From Pisciglobus halotolerans (GTDB lineage: Bacteria; Bacillota; Bacilli; Lactobacillales; Carnobacteriaceae): a DNA stretch of 34,401 bases. Shown piece after piece: positions 16,421 to 34,401 of this stretch (position 1 is the first letter of the stretch; the number at the start of each line of letters is the position of its first letter). The translations under genes were made by a program, and so were the position numbers. Location: the NCBI RefSeq assembly GCF_900113675.1, contig NZ_FOQE01000023.1, positions 1 to 34,401 of the forward strand, given 5' to 3'. The notes under the pieces were generated by a model. The model made no database searches, was not told the origin of the DNA, and saw only the letters and a list, made by a program, of their open reading frames with translations.

Positions 16421-16646
16421 CTGTAAACAAGTTGCTTGCCGGGTTTTATGCTCTGAACTTGATCACAGCAGCTTGGTCTGTGAACGAGTTGCAGGTTTTG
16501 TGCCCTGAACTTGATCACAGCAGCTTGATCTGTGAACGAGTTGAAGGTTTTATACTCTGAACTTGATCACAGCAGCTTGGTCTGTGAACGAGTTGAAGAT
16601 TTTCTGCTCTATACTTGATCACAGCAGCCCAATCTGTGAACGAGTT
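16421..16646 (+). repeat. Array 1: four 52-bp hairpin units
   Basis: Each unit has arms AACTTGATCACAG and CTGTGAACGAGTT around a 9-base loop (13-9-13), then a 17-base spacer. Dyads start at 16456, 16508, 16560 and 16612, exactly 52 bp apart. A degenerate right arm (16421-16433) precedes them. The arms pair at 12 of 13 positions with one A-A mismatch. The 16252-16420 stretch upstream shows nothing else clear. The array lies between the divergent chromate and GT8 genes. Confidence 0.9.
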
Positions 16647-16650
16647 GCAG

Positions 16651-16775
16651 CACAATAGCATTCAACTGATGCTGCTAAACATAGCTTGCTGTCATTTGGC
16701 TAAACACTCATCCGTCTATACCGAATACAGAAAGTGAAGTCTGTTTTCAAGAAAATATTCATTATAATAGTAAGA
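16651..16775 (+). repeat. Array-end module, copy 1
   Basis: It begins CACAATAGCATTCAACTGAT and then GCTGCTAAACAT, a stretch of 32 bases identical to 24124 onward. Similarity then continues more weakly for about 90 bases (CTCATC-GTCTATACCGAATA against CTCATCAATCTGTACTGAACA). It directly abuts the last hairpin unit in both places. Confidence 0.8.
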
Positions 16776-19309: not shown

Positions 19310-19559
19310 AGGATGTGGAGCGACCCCGATAGAGAACGAGCACTAACGAAGGAACAACGCAAGCAACCCAGCGAAGCGGTTGTGCGGATGTTACAAGTTA
19401 GGCGGAGATCTCTGGGGAGCGCAACTCAACTACTAGGATGTGGAGCGACCCCGATAGAGAACGAGCACTAACGAAGGAACAACGCAAGCAACCCAGCGAA
19501 GCGGTTGTGCGGATGTTACAAGTTAGGCGGAGATCTCTGGGGAGCGCAACTCAACTACT
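19310..19559 (+). repeat. Two tandem 125-bp AGGATG modules
   Basis: 19310-19434 and 19435-19559 appear identical. Each starts AGGATGTGGAGCGACCCCG and ends GCAACTCAACTACT. The first ~75 bases are T-poor and match the unit after pcp (942). A reading frame from ATG 19313 stays open 52 codons (to 19471), beginning MWSDPDRERALTKEQRKQP; it is in the gor frame but after the gor stop. Coding is unproven. Confidence 0.9.
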
Positions 19560-19765
19560 AGGATGTGGAGCGAGGTCGAAAGAGGCGACAGGAAAATGAA
19601 AAAGTGCGCCGCAGAGCATCCCGCGCATGCGAGCGACTTTTGAGTTTTACCCGAGACTCTACCTCGCACAGCTCAACTAAAAGGATGTGGACAAAGCCCG
19701 AAAGAGTCACAGCAAAAACAGGAAGTTGTTGAAGAGAGCAGCGTAGCGCGCATCAAAACATATAA
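19560..19765 (+). repeat. Two further AGGATG modules with different cores
   Basis: Module 3 (19560-19681, 122 bp) starts AGGATGTGGAGCGAGG and ends CACAGCTCAACTAA. Module 4 starts at 19682 with AGGATGTGGACAAAGCCCG and fades near 19765. The ends match the 125-bp modules while the interiors differ, so these look like mosaic cassettes. The start of module 3 is again T-poor. Confidence 0.7.
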
Positions 19766-23566: not shown

Positions 23567-23617
23567 AAAATGACGCTATTTTCCTTTTTTGAGGGAAATA
23601 GCGTCATTTTGTCTTTT
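23567..23617 (+). terminator. Strong terminator after tcyP
   Basis: AAAATGACGCTATTTTCC (23567-23584) pairs with GGGAAATAGCGTCATTTT (23593-23610) almost perfectly, followed by GTCTTTTTTT. Confidence 0.9.
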
Positions 23618-23824
23618 TTTTAGAATGGCTGTCTCTTAATCAGCAGCCATTACCACTACAACGAACACAATAAACTGTAAGGGACTACGTACAAAGTTTG
23701 ATTCGCTCATGGTGCTGGATTGATAGCACAGATCTTAGCGAAAAGATGCAAAGCGAGCGAAGCGTGGCTTTGCATCCTTAAAAGTCTTTTGGCTTTCTTC
23801 CTATCATGCGAGATAGATGTGCTG
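23618..23824. other. Intergenic stretch before array 2
   Basis: It contains a 10-bp hairpin (GATGCAAAGC at 23744 with GCTTTGCATC) without a following T run. No gene is visible. Confidence 0.45.
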
Positions 23825-24119
23825 CAAAACTGCATGGCATTCTATCTTGTGAACGAGTTGCAGGATTTCCGCTCTGAACTTGATCACAGGAGCCTAGTCT
23901 GTGAACGAGTTGCAGGATTTCCGTTCCCAACTTGATCACAGGAGCCTAGCCTGTGAACGAGTTGCAGGATTTCCGCTCTGAACTTGATCACAGGAGCCTA
24001 GTCTGTGAACGAGTTGCAGGATTTCCGTTCTGAACTTGATCACAGGAGTCTAGTCTGTGAATGAGTTGCAGGCTTTCCGCTCTGAACTTGATCACAGCAG
24101 CCTGATCTATGAACGATTC
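23825..24119 (+). repeat. Array 2: five 52-bp hairpin units plus a degenerate one
   Basis: Dyads start at 23877, 23929, 23981, 24033 and 24085, exactly 52 bp apart, each AACTTGATCACAG, 9 bases, CTGTGAACGAGTT with few changes. A sixth, half-decayed unit at 23825 stays in register (right arm 23847-23859). The 17-base spacer is GCAGGATTTCCGCTCTG or close. It lies between convergent tcyP and the exporter genes. Confidence 0.92.
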
Positions 24120-24123
24120 GCAA

Positions 24124-24248
24124 CACAATAGCATTCAACTGATGCTGCTAAACATTCTTTGCGAGTATATGTCTAAAAGCTCATCAATCTGTACTGAACA
24201 TAGAAAGAGAAGGCTGCTTTCTAAAGAGTGTTCGTTGTAGTGGGCTCT
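24124..24248 (+). repeat. Array-end module, copy 2
   Basis: It begins with the same 32 bases as 16651 and stays similar for about 125 bases. It follows the last unit of array 2 directly and ends about 30 bases before the exporter permease stop. Confidence 0.8.
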
Positions 24249-24281
24249 TTGACTCCGTTATTTGCGTTACTGTCTAGGTGA

Positions 24282-25508
24282 TTATTCATAGCGCAGAGCT
24301 TCAATTGGATCTAATCGCGCAGCTTTGCGGGCAGGATAAATACCGAAGAAGATACCAACAGCACTAGAAAAGAACAAAACGAGCAGGACTGAGCCAATCG
24401 TAATGTTCGGCACGATATCGAGTGCATTAGAAACAACGGAAGCTAAGAAGATTCCTAAAACAAGGCCGATGATACCGCCGATCAAGCACAGGATGACAGA
24501 TTCCATTAAAAATTGAGCGAGGATCGTTCCTGTAGTGGCCCCTAAAGCTTTTCTTGTTCCGATTTCTCTGGTTCGTTCTGTTACCGAGACGAGCATGATA
24601 TTCATTACACCGATACCGCCGACCAGCAGTGCGATCGCAGCTACAGCAGCAATGAAGTTAATGAACAAACTCATCACATTATCTACCTGATCTAACGCTT
24701 GTAAGAAGTTGGTTGCAGAATACCAGTCTTCACCAACAGCATCATGACGCGTTTCTAAGATTCTTACAGCTTGTTTAGAGACGGATTCGATCGCATCTTT
24801 GCTGTCGACTTGGATCGTCAAACTGTTGATTCCTTTGATCGTTGGGTTCATTTTTTCCATAGTGGTCAAAGGAACAGCTGCATAAACCGGCATTTGGCTT
24901 AAGTCAAATGAGCCTTGCAGATCTTGAAACGTTCCCTTAACGACACCGATTACGGTCAAATCCGATTGGTTCCCAGCATTATCTGAGATTTTCAGCTGTT
25001 CACCTACTACATCTGTTTGACCATTAAATAACGCTGCTGCTGTATCTTCGCTGATAACTGTGACATCTTTACTGTCCAAATAATCACTTTGATTAAAGTA
25101 GCGACCATAGACGATCGTGCTGTCCATCGTTTGGTTGATGTATTGCAAGTCGGGCATGCCATAGGAGAGCAGAGCATCTCTTGTATCAAAATCAGAACGA
25201 ACCGAAGCGCTGGTCGTATTGTTGGCTGACACGCGCTCGATTTCTGGGATGCTTTCTTTTAAAGCTGTCACGTCTGCATCAGTGATGGCCTCACTATCCG
25301 TTGCATCATTTGAAACGGATAACGTAATCGTCGAAGCACCTAAATCATTGAAAGTGCCGGTGATCTCTGAAGTTGCTCCGTTCCCGATGCCGAGAATAGC
25401 AATAACCGCAGCGATCCCAATGATAATACCTAACATGGTCAAAAAGGAGCGCATCTTATTGGCCAATACACTATCGATCGCCATTTTAAAATTTTCTCTT
25501 AGATTCAT
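24282..25508 (-). CDS. MacB/FtsX-type ABC exporter permease
   Basis: A 408-residue permease with one helix near residues 18-42, a large extracytoplasmic domain (about 45-280) and three C-terminal helices (about 283-310, 335-362, 370-393). MLGIIIGIAAVIAILGIGNG at the N-terminus and GGIGVMNIMLVSVTERTREIGTRKALGA are typical of the MacB/YknZ group. This group couples ATP use to pulling peptides or toxins out at the membrane surface. ATG 25508 has AAAGGAG about 9 bases upstream. Last gene of the adaptor-ATPase-permease operon; B. subtilis YknXYZ protects against a killing peptide, so a similar role is possible. Confidence 0.87.
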   Translation of the reverse strand: MNLRENFKMAIDSVLANKMRSFLTMLGIIIGIAAVIAILGIGNGATSEITGTFNDLGASTITLSVSNDATDSEAITDADVTALKESIPEIERVSANNTTSASVRSDFDTRDALLSYGMPDLQYINQTMDSTIVYGRYFNQSDYLDSKDVTVISEDTAAALFNGQTDVVGEQLKISDNAGNQSDLTVIGVVKGTFQDLQGSFDLSQMPVYAAVPLTTMEKMNPTIKGINSLTIQVDSKDAIESVSKQAVRILETRHDAVGEDWYSATNFLQALDQVDNVMSLFINFIAAVAAIALLVGGIGVMNIMLVSVTERTREIGTRKALGATTGTILAQFLMESVILCLIGGIIGLVLGIFLASVVSNALDIVPNITIGSVLLVLFFSSAVGIFFGIYPARKAARLDPIEALRYE

Positions 25509-31850: not shown

Positions 31851-31937
31851 AACTTGTTCATAGACTGAGCCTCTGTGATCAAGTCGAGTCTAGATTAGCT
31901 GTAACTTGTTCATAGACTGAGCTCCTGTGACCAAGTC
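31851..31937 (-). repeat. Array 3: two inverted 52-bp hairpin units
   Basis: Dyads at 31851-31885 and 31903-31937 have the 13-9-13 layout and 52-bp spacing of arrays 1 and 2 but read on the minus strand (GACTTGATCACAG, 9 bases, CTATGAACAAGTT). It lies between the operon terminator and the tex promoter. 31938-32024 shows no further element. Confidence 0.88.
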
Positions 31938-32086: not shown

Positions 32087-34270
32087 GTGACTGAAATGAA
32101 CGAAACGAATGTCATGACATTATTAGGCGAAGAATTGAAAGGCTATACGAGAAAGCAACTGACGACAGTATTGAATTTGTTGAGTGAAGGGAATACTGTG
32201 CCGTTTATTGCGCGTTATCGAAAAGAAATGACGGGCTCGTTAGATGAAGTTCAAATTCGTGAAATCGAAGAACGACATCAGTATATTGAAAATTTGGAAA
32301 AACGAAAAGCAGATGTTTTGCATACCATCGATGAACAAGGCAAATTGACTCCTGAATTAAAACGGGAAATTGAAAAAGCAGACAAGATGCAACTGGTAGA
32401 AGACTTGTATCGTCCTTATAAACAAAAGCGCCGCACCAAAGCGACGATCGCAAAAGAAAAAGGACTGGAACCTTTTGCGGAGTGGTTGTGGACTTTTCCG
32501 CATGCAGATATCCAAGCAGAAGCTGCTCAGTATATCGATGCAGAAAAAGAGGTTGCTTCTGCGGAAGAGGCTTTAGCTGGAGCACACGAAATCTTGGCAG
32601 AAACAATCAGTGATGAGCCAAGTTATCGCAAATGGATCAGAAATCACACTTTTAATCATGGTCGGATCGTTTCCACTGCGAAAAACGAAGAAGCGGATGA
32701 AAAAGGCGTTTATGAAATGTACTATGATTACAGCGAACCCATCAAGTCTGTTGTTTCACATCGGATTTTAGCCATGAACCGCGGTGAAAAAGAAGATATT
32801 TTAAAAGTGGCGGTTGAAATAGATGAAACGCAAATCGATACGTACTTCATCAATCAATTGATGAAAGACTTGACTTCTCCTGCAGCGGCGTATATTCAAG
32901 CCGCCTACGAAGACAGCTACAAACGTTTCATCGGACCGGCGATCGAACGTGAAATTCGTTCAGAGCTGACTGAAAAAGCTGAGGAACAAGCGATTGCGAT
33001 TTTTGGGGAAAACTTGCGAAATCTGTTGCTGCAAGCGCCGTTAAAAGGAAAAATCGTTTTAGGACTAGATCCCGCTTATCGGACTGGTTGCAAGCTAGCT
33101 GTATTGGATCCAACCGGAAAAGTGCTGGACATTGACGTGATTTATCCGCACAAACCAGCAAGTGCAGCTAAACGAGAAGAAGCTGCTGTCAAATTTAAAA
33201 AAATTATCAAACAGTTTGACGTGGAAATGGTTGCCATCGGAAATGGAACAGCTAGCCGTGAATCAGAGACCTTTGTAGTTGAAAATCTACGCGACCTGGA
33301 CCAAGAAGTCTTTTATGTGATCGTGAATGAAGCAGGTGCTTCTGTTTACTCGGCCAGCGAAGAAGCACGAAATGAATTCCCTGATCTGCAAGTTGAACAA
33401 AGAAGTGCTGTCAGTATTGGCCGCCGTTTGCAAGATCCTTTGGCAGAGCTTGTCAAAATCGAGCCCAAAGCTGTTGGTGTAGGGCAATACCAACACGACG
33501 TTTCGCAAAAGCAATTGGCAGAGCAATTAGATTTTGTCGTCGAAACGGCCGTCAACCAAGTAGGTGTCAATGTGAATACCGCGAGCGCTTCGTTGTTGCA
33601 GCGGATTGCCGGTTTGACCAGGACAACTGCTAAGAATGTCGTTGTTTTCCGTGAAGAAAATGGCCGTTTTGAAAAGAGAAATCAATTGAAGAAAGTACCC
33701 CGTTTAGGACCAAAAGCTTATGAACAAGCAATCGGTTTTCTGCGGATCATCGGCGGCAAGAATGTACTAGATAATACCGGTATCCACCCAGAATCTTACG
33801 GCGAAGCAGAACAAATTTTAGCCATCGCTGGCTTGACTTTGGAAGATGTAGGAACGGAAAAAGCGAAAGAAGCTTTAGCCAAATGCCATTTGAAAGAGCT
33901 AGAAGAAGCAACTGGATTAGGCAAAGAGACGCTGCAGGATATTCTGGATGCATTAGTGAAGCCAGGACGTGACTTGCGCGATGACATGCCGGCACCGTTG
34001 TTGCGCAAGGATGTTTTAACAATGGAAGATTTGAAACCCGGCATGGAGTTGGAAGGGACAGTCCGGAATGTGGTCGACTTTGGCGCTTTCGTAGATATCG
34101 GCGTTAAACAAGACGGTCTCGTGCACATTTCAAAACTCAGCAACAAATTTGTCAAACACCCTACAGATGTGGTTGCTGTCGGAGATATCGTGACAGTCTG
34201 GGTAGATGATGTTGATTTGAATAAAGGACGCATCTCCCTTACGATGTTGTCTCCAAAAAATGCAGATTAA
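32087..34270 (+). CDS. tex: Tex-family S1 RNA-binding protein
   Basis: A 727-residue cytosolic nucleic-acid-binding protein thought to act with RNA polymerase in transcription or RNA handling. The helical N-terminal region contains TVPFIARYRKEMTGSLDE. The YqgF/RNase H-like domain starts near residue 323 (VLGLDPAYRTGCKLAVLD). Helix-hairpin-helix motifs follow (VGVNVNTASASLLQRIAGL, FEKRNQLKKVPRLGPKAYEQ). The C-terminal S1 domain is around residues 648-720 (GMELEGTVRNVVDFGAFVDI). GTG 32087 follows GAGGAAG by about 7 bases; ATG 32096, three codons on, is an alternative. Length is normal. A diverged 52-bp repeat array begins at its stop codon. Confidence 0.92.
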   Translation: MTEMNETNVMTLLGEELKGYTRKQLTTVLNLLSEGNTVPFIARYRKEMTGSLDEVQIREIEERHQYIENLEKRKADVLHTIDEQGKLTPELKREIEKADKMQLVEDLYRPYKQKRRTKATIAKEKGLEPFAEWLWTFPHADIQAEAAQYIDAEKEVASAEEALAGAHEILAETISDEPSYRKWIRNHTFNHGRIVSTAKNEEADEKGVYEMYYDYSEPIKSVVSHRILAMNRGEKEDILKVAVEIDETQIDTYFINQLMKDLTSPAAAYIQAAYEDSYKRFIGPAIEREIRSELTEKAEEQAIAIFGENLRNLLLQAPLKGKIVLGLDPAYRTGCKLAVLDPTGKVLDIDVIYPHKPASAAKREEAAVKFKKIIKQFDVEMVAIGNGTASRESETFVVENLRDLDQEVFYVIVNEAGASVYSASEEARNEFPDLQVEQRSAVSIGRRLQDPLAELVKIEPKAVGVGQYQHDVSQKQLAEQLDFVVETAVNQVGVNVNTASASLLQRIAGLTRTTAKNVVVFREENGRFEKRNQLKKVPRLGPKAYEQAIGFLRIIGGKNVLDNTGIHPESYGEAEQILAIAGLTLEDVGTEKAKEALAKCHLKELEEATGLGKETLQDILDALVKPGRDLRDDMPAPLLRKDVLTMEDLKPGMELEGTVRNVVDFGAFVDIGVKQDGLVHISKLSNKFVKHPTDVVAVGDIVTVWVDDVDLNKGRISLTMLSPKNAD

Positions 34271-34401
34271 GTTGGTCATAAACAAGCTTTTATTACCTAC
34301 TCGAGGGGGTAAACCAATTTGAGTTGGTCATAAGTTAGCTTTTATTACAAACTCAAGAGGGCAAATCAGTTTGAGTTCGTTATAAAGCAGCTTTTATGAC
34401 A
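34270..34401 (+). repeat. Array 4: diverged 52-bp repeat after tex (cut by window edge)
   Basis: AGTTGGTCATAAA at 34270, AGTTGGTCATAAG at 34322 and AGTTCGTTATAAA at 34374 are spaced exactly 52 bp. The first two pair with TTTATTACCTACT and TTTATTACAAACT across 6-base loops (10 of 13 matched in the second). The period equals arrays 1-3, and a central AAGCT is shared with their reverse complement, but sequence is otherwise changed. The first arm begins on the last A of the tex stop. Confidence 0.8.

What the first reader, a model, noticed from the sequence alone, without database searches (positions are those of the whole stretch)
23825..24119. A 52-bp hairpin-unit repeat family in three to four arrays
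Arrays at 16421, 23825 and 31851 contain eleven intact units. In all of them the dyad is 13-9-13 and successive dyads are exactly 52 bp apart. 52 bp is about five helical turns, so bound proteins would line up on one face. The arms carry the same A-A mismatch (GATCAC against GTGAAC) everywhere, which gives each unit a direction and argues against simple slippage decay. All copies are intergenic. A protein-bound array, a nucleoid or segregation site, or a structured RNA are all possible; I know no described family with these features.
Basis: partly seen in the sequence, partly recalled or inferred. Interest (0 to 1): 0.75.

Follow-up and report, generated by a model that had tools for sequence, protein, structure and literature searches.

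The report
Phased 52-base-pair hairpin-unit repeat arrays
A lactic-acid-type bacterium carries dozens of intergenic arrays of 52-base-pair mirror-image units, many of them riding in small mobile-element shells; several unrelated-looking versions keep the same unit length, which suggests that something reads them as evenly phased DNA sites.

Summary
The window holds eleven 13-9-13 dyads in three arrays, 52 bp apart within each array. The genome holds about 31 arrays of this family (F1) and further families (F2 to F4) with other sequences but the same 52-bp period. Many F1 and F2 arrays lie inside short elements with shared inverted termini (six complete ones, 181-797 bp), so the array is largely cargo of a MITE/BOX-like modular element; 13 of 31 F1 arrays show no shell.

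It was right that the period is strict and the copies intergenic. Arms are about 90% identical between arrays, loops and linkers about 48%, so the arms look constrained. Arrays with a GAGTTnGTC half-site and a 50-51-bp period occur in two further genera.

Most likely these are non-autonomous mobile repeats whose arrays are helically phased binding sites for an unidentified DNA-binding protein. The architecture is well supported; the protein is inferred. New variant of a known kind (BOX, BrickBuilt).

The parts
23847..24119 (+). F1 array, five 13-9-13 dyads (23877-23911, 23929-23963, 23981-24015, 24033-24067, 24085-24119) plus a leading left arm
   Evidence: TRF period 52, 5.2 copies
16421..16646 (+). 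F1 array, four dyads (16456-16490, 16508-16542, 16560-16594, 16612-16646)
   Evidence: TRF period 52, 4.0 copies
31851..31937 (-). F1 array, two dyads, no shell module found beside it
34270..34401 (-). Array of another 52-bp family (F2/F3 type; GAGT..ACTC width 34, linker 18), cut by the contig end
23651..24245 (+). Whole modular element: terminal inverted repeats, 5' module, array, 3' module (595 bp)
   Evidence: terminal repeat pair with 1 and 3 mismatches; module copies elsewhere in the genome
23651..23667 (+). Left terminal inverted repeat
24229..24245 (-). Right terminal inverted repeat (3 mismatches to the model)
23668..23846 (+). 5' module
   Evidence: 15 places in own genome match window 23640-23850 at E<=0.001, the query itself and some terminal-repeat-only matches included
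24120..24228 (+). 3' module
   Evidence: 16 places in own genome match window 24110-24260 at E<=0.001, the query itself and some end-only matches included
16647..16766 (+). 3' module copy after the 16421 array (77% identical)

Best explanation
These are arrays of helically phased inverted half-sites carried largely by a family of non-autonomous, BOX/MITE-like modular elements. Shown: a terminal-repeat shell holds a 5' module, a variable number of 52-bp units and a 3' module; two sequence families of array (F1, F2) occur in shells with the same ends; other arrays lie outside recognisable shells. Shown: arms are far more conserved than loops and linkers, and the period is 52 across families. Inferred: a DNA-binding protein (host nucleoid or architectural protein, or the element's lost transposase) binds the arms cooperatively on one face of the helix (half-sites about 2 and 3 turns apart, 5 turns per unit), so selection keeps arm sequence and unit length while linker sequence drifts; unit number changes by unequal recombination or slippage; shells spread arrays to new intergenic places when a transposase was present.
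For: Terminal repeats bound six elements of 181, 436, 595, 679, 703 and 797 bp in the fetched loci; F1 in the window copy, F2 in L036, L041, L045 and L040, no TRF array in L039. 52 is the period of 45 of 49 TRF arrays of period >=28 in the fetched own loci; a 46th (L024) is hidden by a 29-bp row. In 381 kb of own genome picked by hand without regard to arrays, all seven TRF arrays of period >30 have period 52. Between-array identity: R arm 0.89, L arm 0.92, 9-nt loop 0.48, 17-nt linker 0.49 over 31 arrays (random 17-mers 0.27). R-9-L gap is 9 in 166 of 172 R-L adjacencies; L-R gap is 17 in 141 of 157 (10 L-L or R-R adjacencies set aside). The modal unit step is 52 in 29 of 30 F1 arrays with two or more cut units, one tie. 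Of 17 non-F1 arrays 15 have modal GAGT..ACTC width 34 and linker 18; F1 has 35+17. Families differ at arm pairs 8 and 9 with pairing kept. Arrays with GAGTTyGTCC half-sites occur in G008 (period 51, twice) and G013 (50, 51), other genera of the same family. Solitary half-sites are near control level, so the sites occur as arrays.
Against: No binding protein was identified or tested. No transposase for the shell was found: PF13358 and PF01797 absent, other IS families not searched; no target-site duplication or empty site established. Period could be kept by common descent: 24 of 31 F1 linkers fall in one single-linkage class. Arm conservation is somewhat inflated, because arrays were found by F1 similarity and cut by matching the R arm. 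Within F1 there are no compensatory changes. Between families the pairing evidence is mixed: pairs 5-14 beat swapped right halves (125 against mean 106 of 170, 4 of 2000 as high) and slid registers (31-57), but a column shuffle over all 17 pairs is not beaten clearly (194 against mean 187 of 289, 100 of 1000 as high); arrays are related and their strand was not harmonised. L018:7829 shows no GAGT..ACTC dyad. One G008 array (L092) has period 52 but no clear dyad. No array of period 48-54 was seen in the stretches sampled from G001, G003, G009, G011, G016.
Confidence: 0.5

Rival explanations
1. Selfish minisatellites with no bound protein. A mobile element with an internal tandem repeat spread, arrays homogenised by slippage and unequal crossing-over, and the 52-bp period is simply inherited by all families from one ancestor.
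For: Precedents: BrickBuilt, a minisatellite within a MITE (abstract), and BOX (passages). No clear bias for gene orientation. 24 of 31 F1 linkers are in one class. The column-shuffle control on pairing between families is not clearly beaten.
Against: Does not explain arms at about 0.9 identity while linkers of the same units are at 0.49, nor width plus linker summing to 52 in both 35+17 and 34+18 layouts. Indels are not rare in the shell modules: 0.06-0.10 per substitution, from 4 and 5 copies.
Confidence: 0.28
2. REP/BIME-like elements: 35-bp palindromes spread and amplified by a transposase that recognises the hairpin.
For: 34-35-bp imperfect palindromes, extragenic, more than 100 per genome; the cited REP paper says that BIMEs bind gyrase and IHF (passages).
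Against: A Y1 transposase (PF01797) was found in none of 6 genomes, this one and G008 included, while the control rings in 5 of 14. No GTAG or CGTC tag at the dyad foot (AACT or GAGT). In Stenotrophomonas BIMEs the inter-REP segments vary in length, though elsewhere REPs are called regularly spaced (passages); here the linker is nearly fixed. The shell has terminal inverted repeats.
Confidence: 0.08
3. A transcribed structured RNA (tandem hairpins acting as mRNA stabiliser, processing site or terminator).
For: Six single units fold better than shuffles (z -2.8 to -5.5; whole window array z -5.4 as RNA, and -3.9 as DNA).
Against: Any long dyad array folds well. No Rfam match. In the R-9-L hairpin G-T pairs number 136, of which 80 at pair 5; A-C number 79, of which 40 at pair 11. 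Of 14 co-directional F1 arrays 5 are sense and 9 antisense (hand count); 9 of 26 classed F1 arrays lie between divergent genes.
Confidence: 0.12

Closest known systems
BOX elements of Streptococcus pneumoniae and S. suis (PMC3049150; passages and section 7 read)
   Same: Modular: 5' module, tandem array of internal modules, 3' module; terminal inverted repeats; many interspersed copies; similar size (67-637 bp there, 181-797 bp here); S. suis has flanks of 115 and 133 nt around shared internal modules.
   Different: 52-bp dyad unit with near-fixed half-site spacing; several sequence families of array, two of them in shells with the same ends; arrays also found without flanks. No sequence comparison with BOX was made here.
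BrickBuilt MITE of Porphyromonas gingivalis (PMC4596501, abstract and outline read)
   Same: MITE with leader and tail enclosing a minisatellite, always intergenic.
   Different: 23-nt unit in a distant phylum; here the unit is a 52-bp dyad and several families share its length.
REP/BIME elements with RAYT transposases (PMC2817692, PMC3733652, passages read)
   Same: Short imperfect palindromes, extragenic, high copy, in clusters; cited as protein-binding sites.
   Different: No Y1 transposase found, no GTAG/CGTC tag, units within an array all in one direction, linker length nearly fixed, inverted-repeat shell.
EFAR elements of Enterococci (only named in PMC3733652; details recalled); E. faecalis stem-loop families Efa-1 and Efa-2 (table in PMC2267715)
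   Same: MITE-type or stem-loop repeats of related lactic acid bacteria; EFAR modular and palindromic (recalled).
   Different: Not compared by sequence here.

Membership tests
MITE / BOX-like modular element | Terminal inverted repeats bounding a short non-coding element | tested here: met
   Six elements of 181-797 bp in fetched loci
MITE / BOX-like modular element | Target-site duplication and empty sites | tested here: inconclusive
   Ends often abut TTA or TTAA-like bases; no clean duplication seen, no conspecific genome held
MITE / BOX-like modular element | Internal modules in variable tandem number between shared end modules | tested here: met
   About 3 to 12 units in arrays that adjoin a shell module
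BOX | Sequence homology to boxA, boxB or boxC | not tested
   No BOX sequence was compared
IS630-mobilised MITE | Cognate IS630-type transposase in the genome | tested here: not met
   PF13358 found in none of 2 genomes (G000, G008)
REP/BIME | 20-40-bp extragenic palindromes in high copy | tested here: met
   34-35 bp, 147 forward hits at up to 2 mismatches
REP/BIME | RAYT (Y1) transposase | tested here: not met
   PF01797 found in none of 6 genomes
REP/BIME | GTAG or CGTC tag at the palindrome foot | tested here: not met
   Feet read AACT (F1) or GAGT (others) in the consensus units
Known structured RNA family | Match to an Rfam model | tested here: not met
   0 matches at gathering scores in the window and 0 at E<=1 in 23600-24300

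The most novel reading that the evidence does not exclude
The arrays are an uncharacterised class of chromosomal scaffold: at least three genera keep intergenic arrays of inverted GAGTTnGTC-type half-sites at about 2- and 3-turn spacing, where arm sequence diverges in complementary steps between families while the five-turn period stays, because an array-binding protein polymerises along one face of the DNA.
Probability: 0.25. Interest if true: 0.8.

Novelty: new variant of a known kind. Interest (0 to 1): 0.55.

Why it matters
Tandem repeats inside bacterial mobile elements are easily taken for inert cargo. Here sequence-distinct repeat families in one genome keep a 52-bp unit with inverted half-sites at about two- and three-turn spacing, and relatives in other genera keep 50-51 bp. 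If a protein reads this phase, the arrays give a sequence handle on an unknown DNA-binding protein and on how a mobile element became a genome-wide scaffold. If nothing reads it, they are a clean case of a repeat unit length inherited across strong sequence divergence.

Tried and rejected
RNA families: no match. tRNA: none. REP/RAYT: no Y1 transposase. IS630: none. Spread through phages or plasmids: no match to window 23640-24260 in either collection; dyad patterns give 0 in viral contigs and 0 in the genome-contig scan (the tool says the window's own or very near records may be left out). Exact F1 dyad pattern: only the own genome of 59; F2 array: only the own genome of 18. Shell end pattern in 294 other genomes of the order: 11 have one hit each, fewer than the 26 control hits, so no autonomous partner was found. 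Named loci around tex (485 kb, the best 80 of a capped list): one period-51 array in L186 (Virgibacillus), not followed. Literature: 52-bp repeats, EFAR/BOX, MITE with tandem repeats, BIME; none of the listed titles and abstract starts describes this family, but searches listed only 20 of 35, 15 of 174 and 8 of 17 papers, and subscription journals are mostly not held. A spacing of '21 and 31 bp' that I first took was off by one base and is now given as 20-22 and 30-32.

Full report
Observation. The eleven window dyads are as described: 13-9-13, 52 bp apart within each of three arrays. The mismatch is A-A in 10 of 11 and G-A in one. The array named in the finding runs 23847-24119. A fourth 52-bp array at 34270-34401 belongs to a different sequence family.

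Genome scale. The window lies in a 2.44-Mb draft of 88 contigs; none of the 58 relatives drawn is of its genus. Its Tex protein is at best 73% identical to the named relatives listed (Isobaculum 73%, Enterococcus 72%), so I place it only in the Lactobacillales (inference). The F1 dyad matches 147 places forward and 154 reverse at up to 2 mismatches (control 0); being palindromic these largely coincide. I parsed 30 F1 arrays and added one at L048; the two in L025 flank an N gap and may be one. Unit steps are 52 in 123 of 130, 53 in 5, 51 in 2; the modal step is 52 in 29 of 30 arrays with two or more cut units, L020 being a tie. Gaps: R-9-L is 9 in 166 of 172 R-L adjacencies (the rest 8, 6 or 5), L-R is 17 in 141 of 157 (the rest mostly 16 or 18, a few chance arms); 10 L-L or R-R adjacencies were set aside.

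Other families. TRF on 266 kb around these loci and on 381 kb picked by hand without regard to arrays shows further families with other sequences but the same period. Of 49 non-overlapping arrays with period of at least 28, 45 have period 52; a 46th, L024, is masked by a 29-bp row. In the 381-kb sample all seven TRF arrays with period over 30 have 52; a further pair of F1-like half-sites 51 bp apart (L061) was not reported by TRF. Of 17 non-F1 arrays 15 have modal GAGT..ACTC width 34 with linker 18; L012:1392 gave one exact pair at 33, and L018:7829 shows none. F1 has 35 and 17. Both layouts sum to 52. Inverted half-sites are 22 and 30 bp apart in F1 and 30 and 22 between GAGT/ACTC cores in the others, about two and three helical turns.

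Shell. Many arrays sit in a larger element. Of 31 F1 arrays, 15 adjoin a copy of the 5' or 3' module on the expected side and strand, L024 adjoins only 25 bp at the 5' end, L015 and L017 have doubtful matches, and 13 have none. Six elements are bounded by terminal repeats: 181, 436, 595, 679, 703, 797 bp. F1 lies in the window copy, F2 in L036, L040, L041, L045; in the 181-bp copy L039 no tandem array was reported. So the same ends carry different arrays. No cognate transposase was found: PF13358 in none of 2 genomes, PF01797 in none of 6; other families were not searched. Target duplications are unresolved.

Constraint. With units cut in register and one consensus per array, identity between the 31 arrays is 0.89 (R arm), 0.92 (L arm), 0.48 (loop) and 0.49 (linker), against 0.27 for random linkers. 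In 17 of 26 arm columns all consensuses agree. The arm values are somewhat inflated, since arrays were found by F1 similarity and phased on the R arm. R7-L7 is A-A in 102 of 166 dyads, T-A in 42, G-A in 19: some arrays outside shells are perfect palindromes and the shell-borne type has lost two pairs, so the mismatch looks like a derived trait of one lineage (inference). Within F1 changes do not compensate. Between families, arm pairs 8 and 9 show T-A, A-T, C-G and C-G, G-C, A-T respectively. Pairs 5-14 are complementary in 125 of 170 cells against a mean of 106 when right halves are swapped among arrays (4 of 2000 as high) and 31-57 in slid registers; but a column shuffle over all 17 pairs gives 194 against a mean of 187, with 100 of 1000 as high. 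The arrays are related and their strand was not harmonised, so this is suggestive, not proof.

Length. Linkers fall in seven single-linkage classes, 24 of 31 in one. Shell modules at about 0.7 identity show 0.06-0.10 indels per substitution from 4 and 5 copies, so neutral linkers this diverged should vary in length. That argues for a length constraint, but the number of independent lineages is small.

Relatives. Exact F1 dyads: none in 58 relatives. F2 array: none in 17 same-family genomes. A pattern for the half-site GAGTTyGTCC with its inverse hits G008 six times and G013 five times, own genome once, 15 of 18 genomes none, reversed control three hits in all. These are tandem arrays: G008 period 51 (L076, L206), G013 periods 51 and 50. 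G008 also has a period-52 array without a clear dyad (L092). Stretches from G001, G003, G009, G011 and G016 held no array of period 48-54; G007 has a 55-bp repeat of 2.1 copies at two places.

RNA or DNA. Units fold well as RNA, as any dyad would. G-T pairs number 136 (80 at one position) and A-C 79 (40 at one position) in the R-9-L hairpin, Rfam has no match, and F1 arrays show no sense bias (5 sense, 9 antisense of 14 co-directional, hand count) or excess between convergent genes (3 of 26). I read this as DNA-level. In the 381-kb sample F1 half-sites number 7 and 4 against shuffled controls of 4 and 2, two of them the L061 pair, so no ordinary regulon is seen.

Known kinds. Architecture resembles BOX (passages and section 7 of PMC3049150) and BrickBuilt (abstract of PMC4596501). 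REP/BIME fails on transposase and tag. Verdict: a new family of MITE-borne tandem dyad arrays, a new variant of a known kind, with an unexplained common period.

Noticed in passing
window 19310-19573: A 125-bp unit repeated 2.1 times with 100% identity right after a glutathione-reductase-like ORF (named by recall); a 79% copy at 940-1064 overlaps the 3' end of the ORF ending at 1028, and further whole or partial copies lie in L060, L018, L059, L044.
   Followed up: partly
L039:1949-2129: A 181-bp copy of the shell with both terminal repeats and no tandem array reported, perhaps a minimal form.
   Followed up: partly
L025:512-1024: A run of N between two halves of an F1 array, so one array may be longer than assembled.
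   Followed up: no
L092:11180-11720 (G008): A period-52 array in another genus without a clear dyad; its upstream flank looks like the AAAGCGAGCGAAGCGAGACTTT hairpin of the 5' module by eye, but blast of the module gave no hit there.
   Followed up: partly
L071:3160-4189 (G003): A 122-bp tandem repeat of about 8 copies in a relative.
   Followed up: no
L186:4150-4291: A 51-bp repeat of 2.8 copies just downstream of tex in a Virgibacillus record.
   Followed up: no
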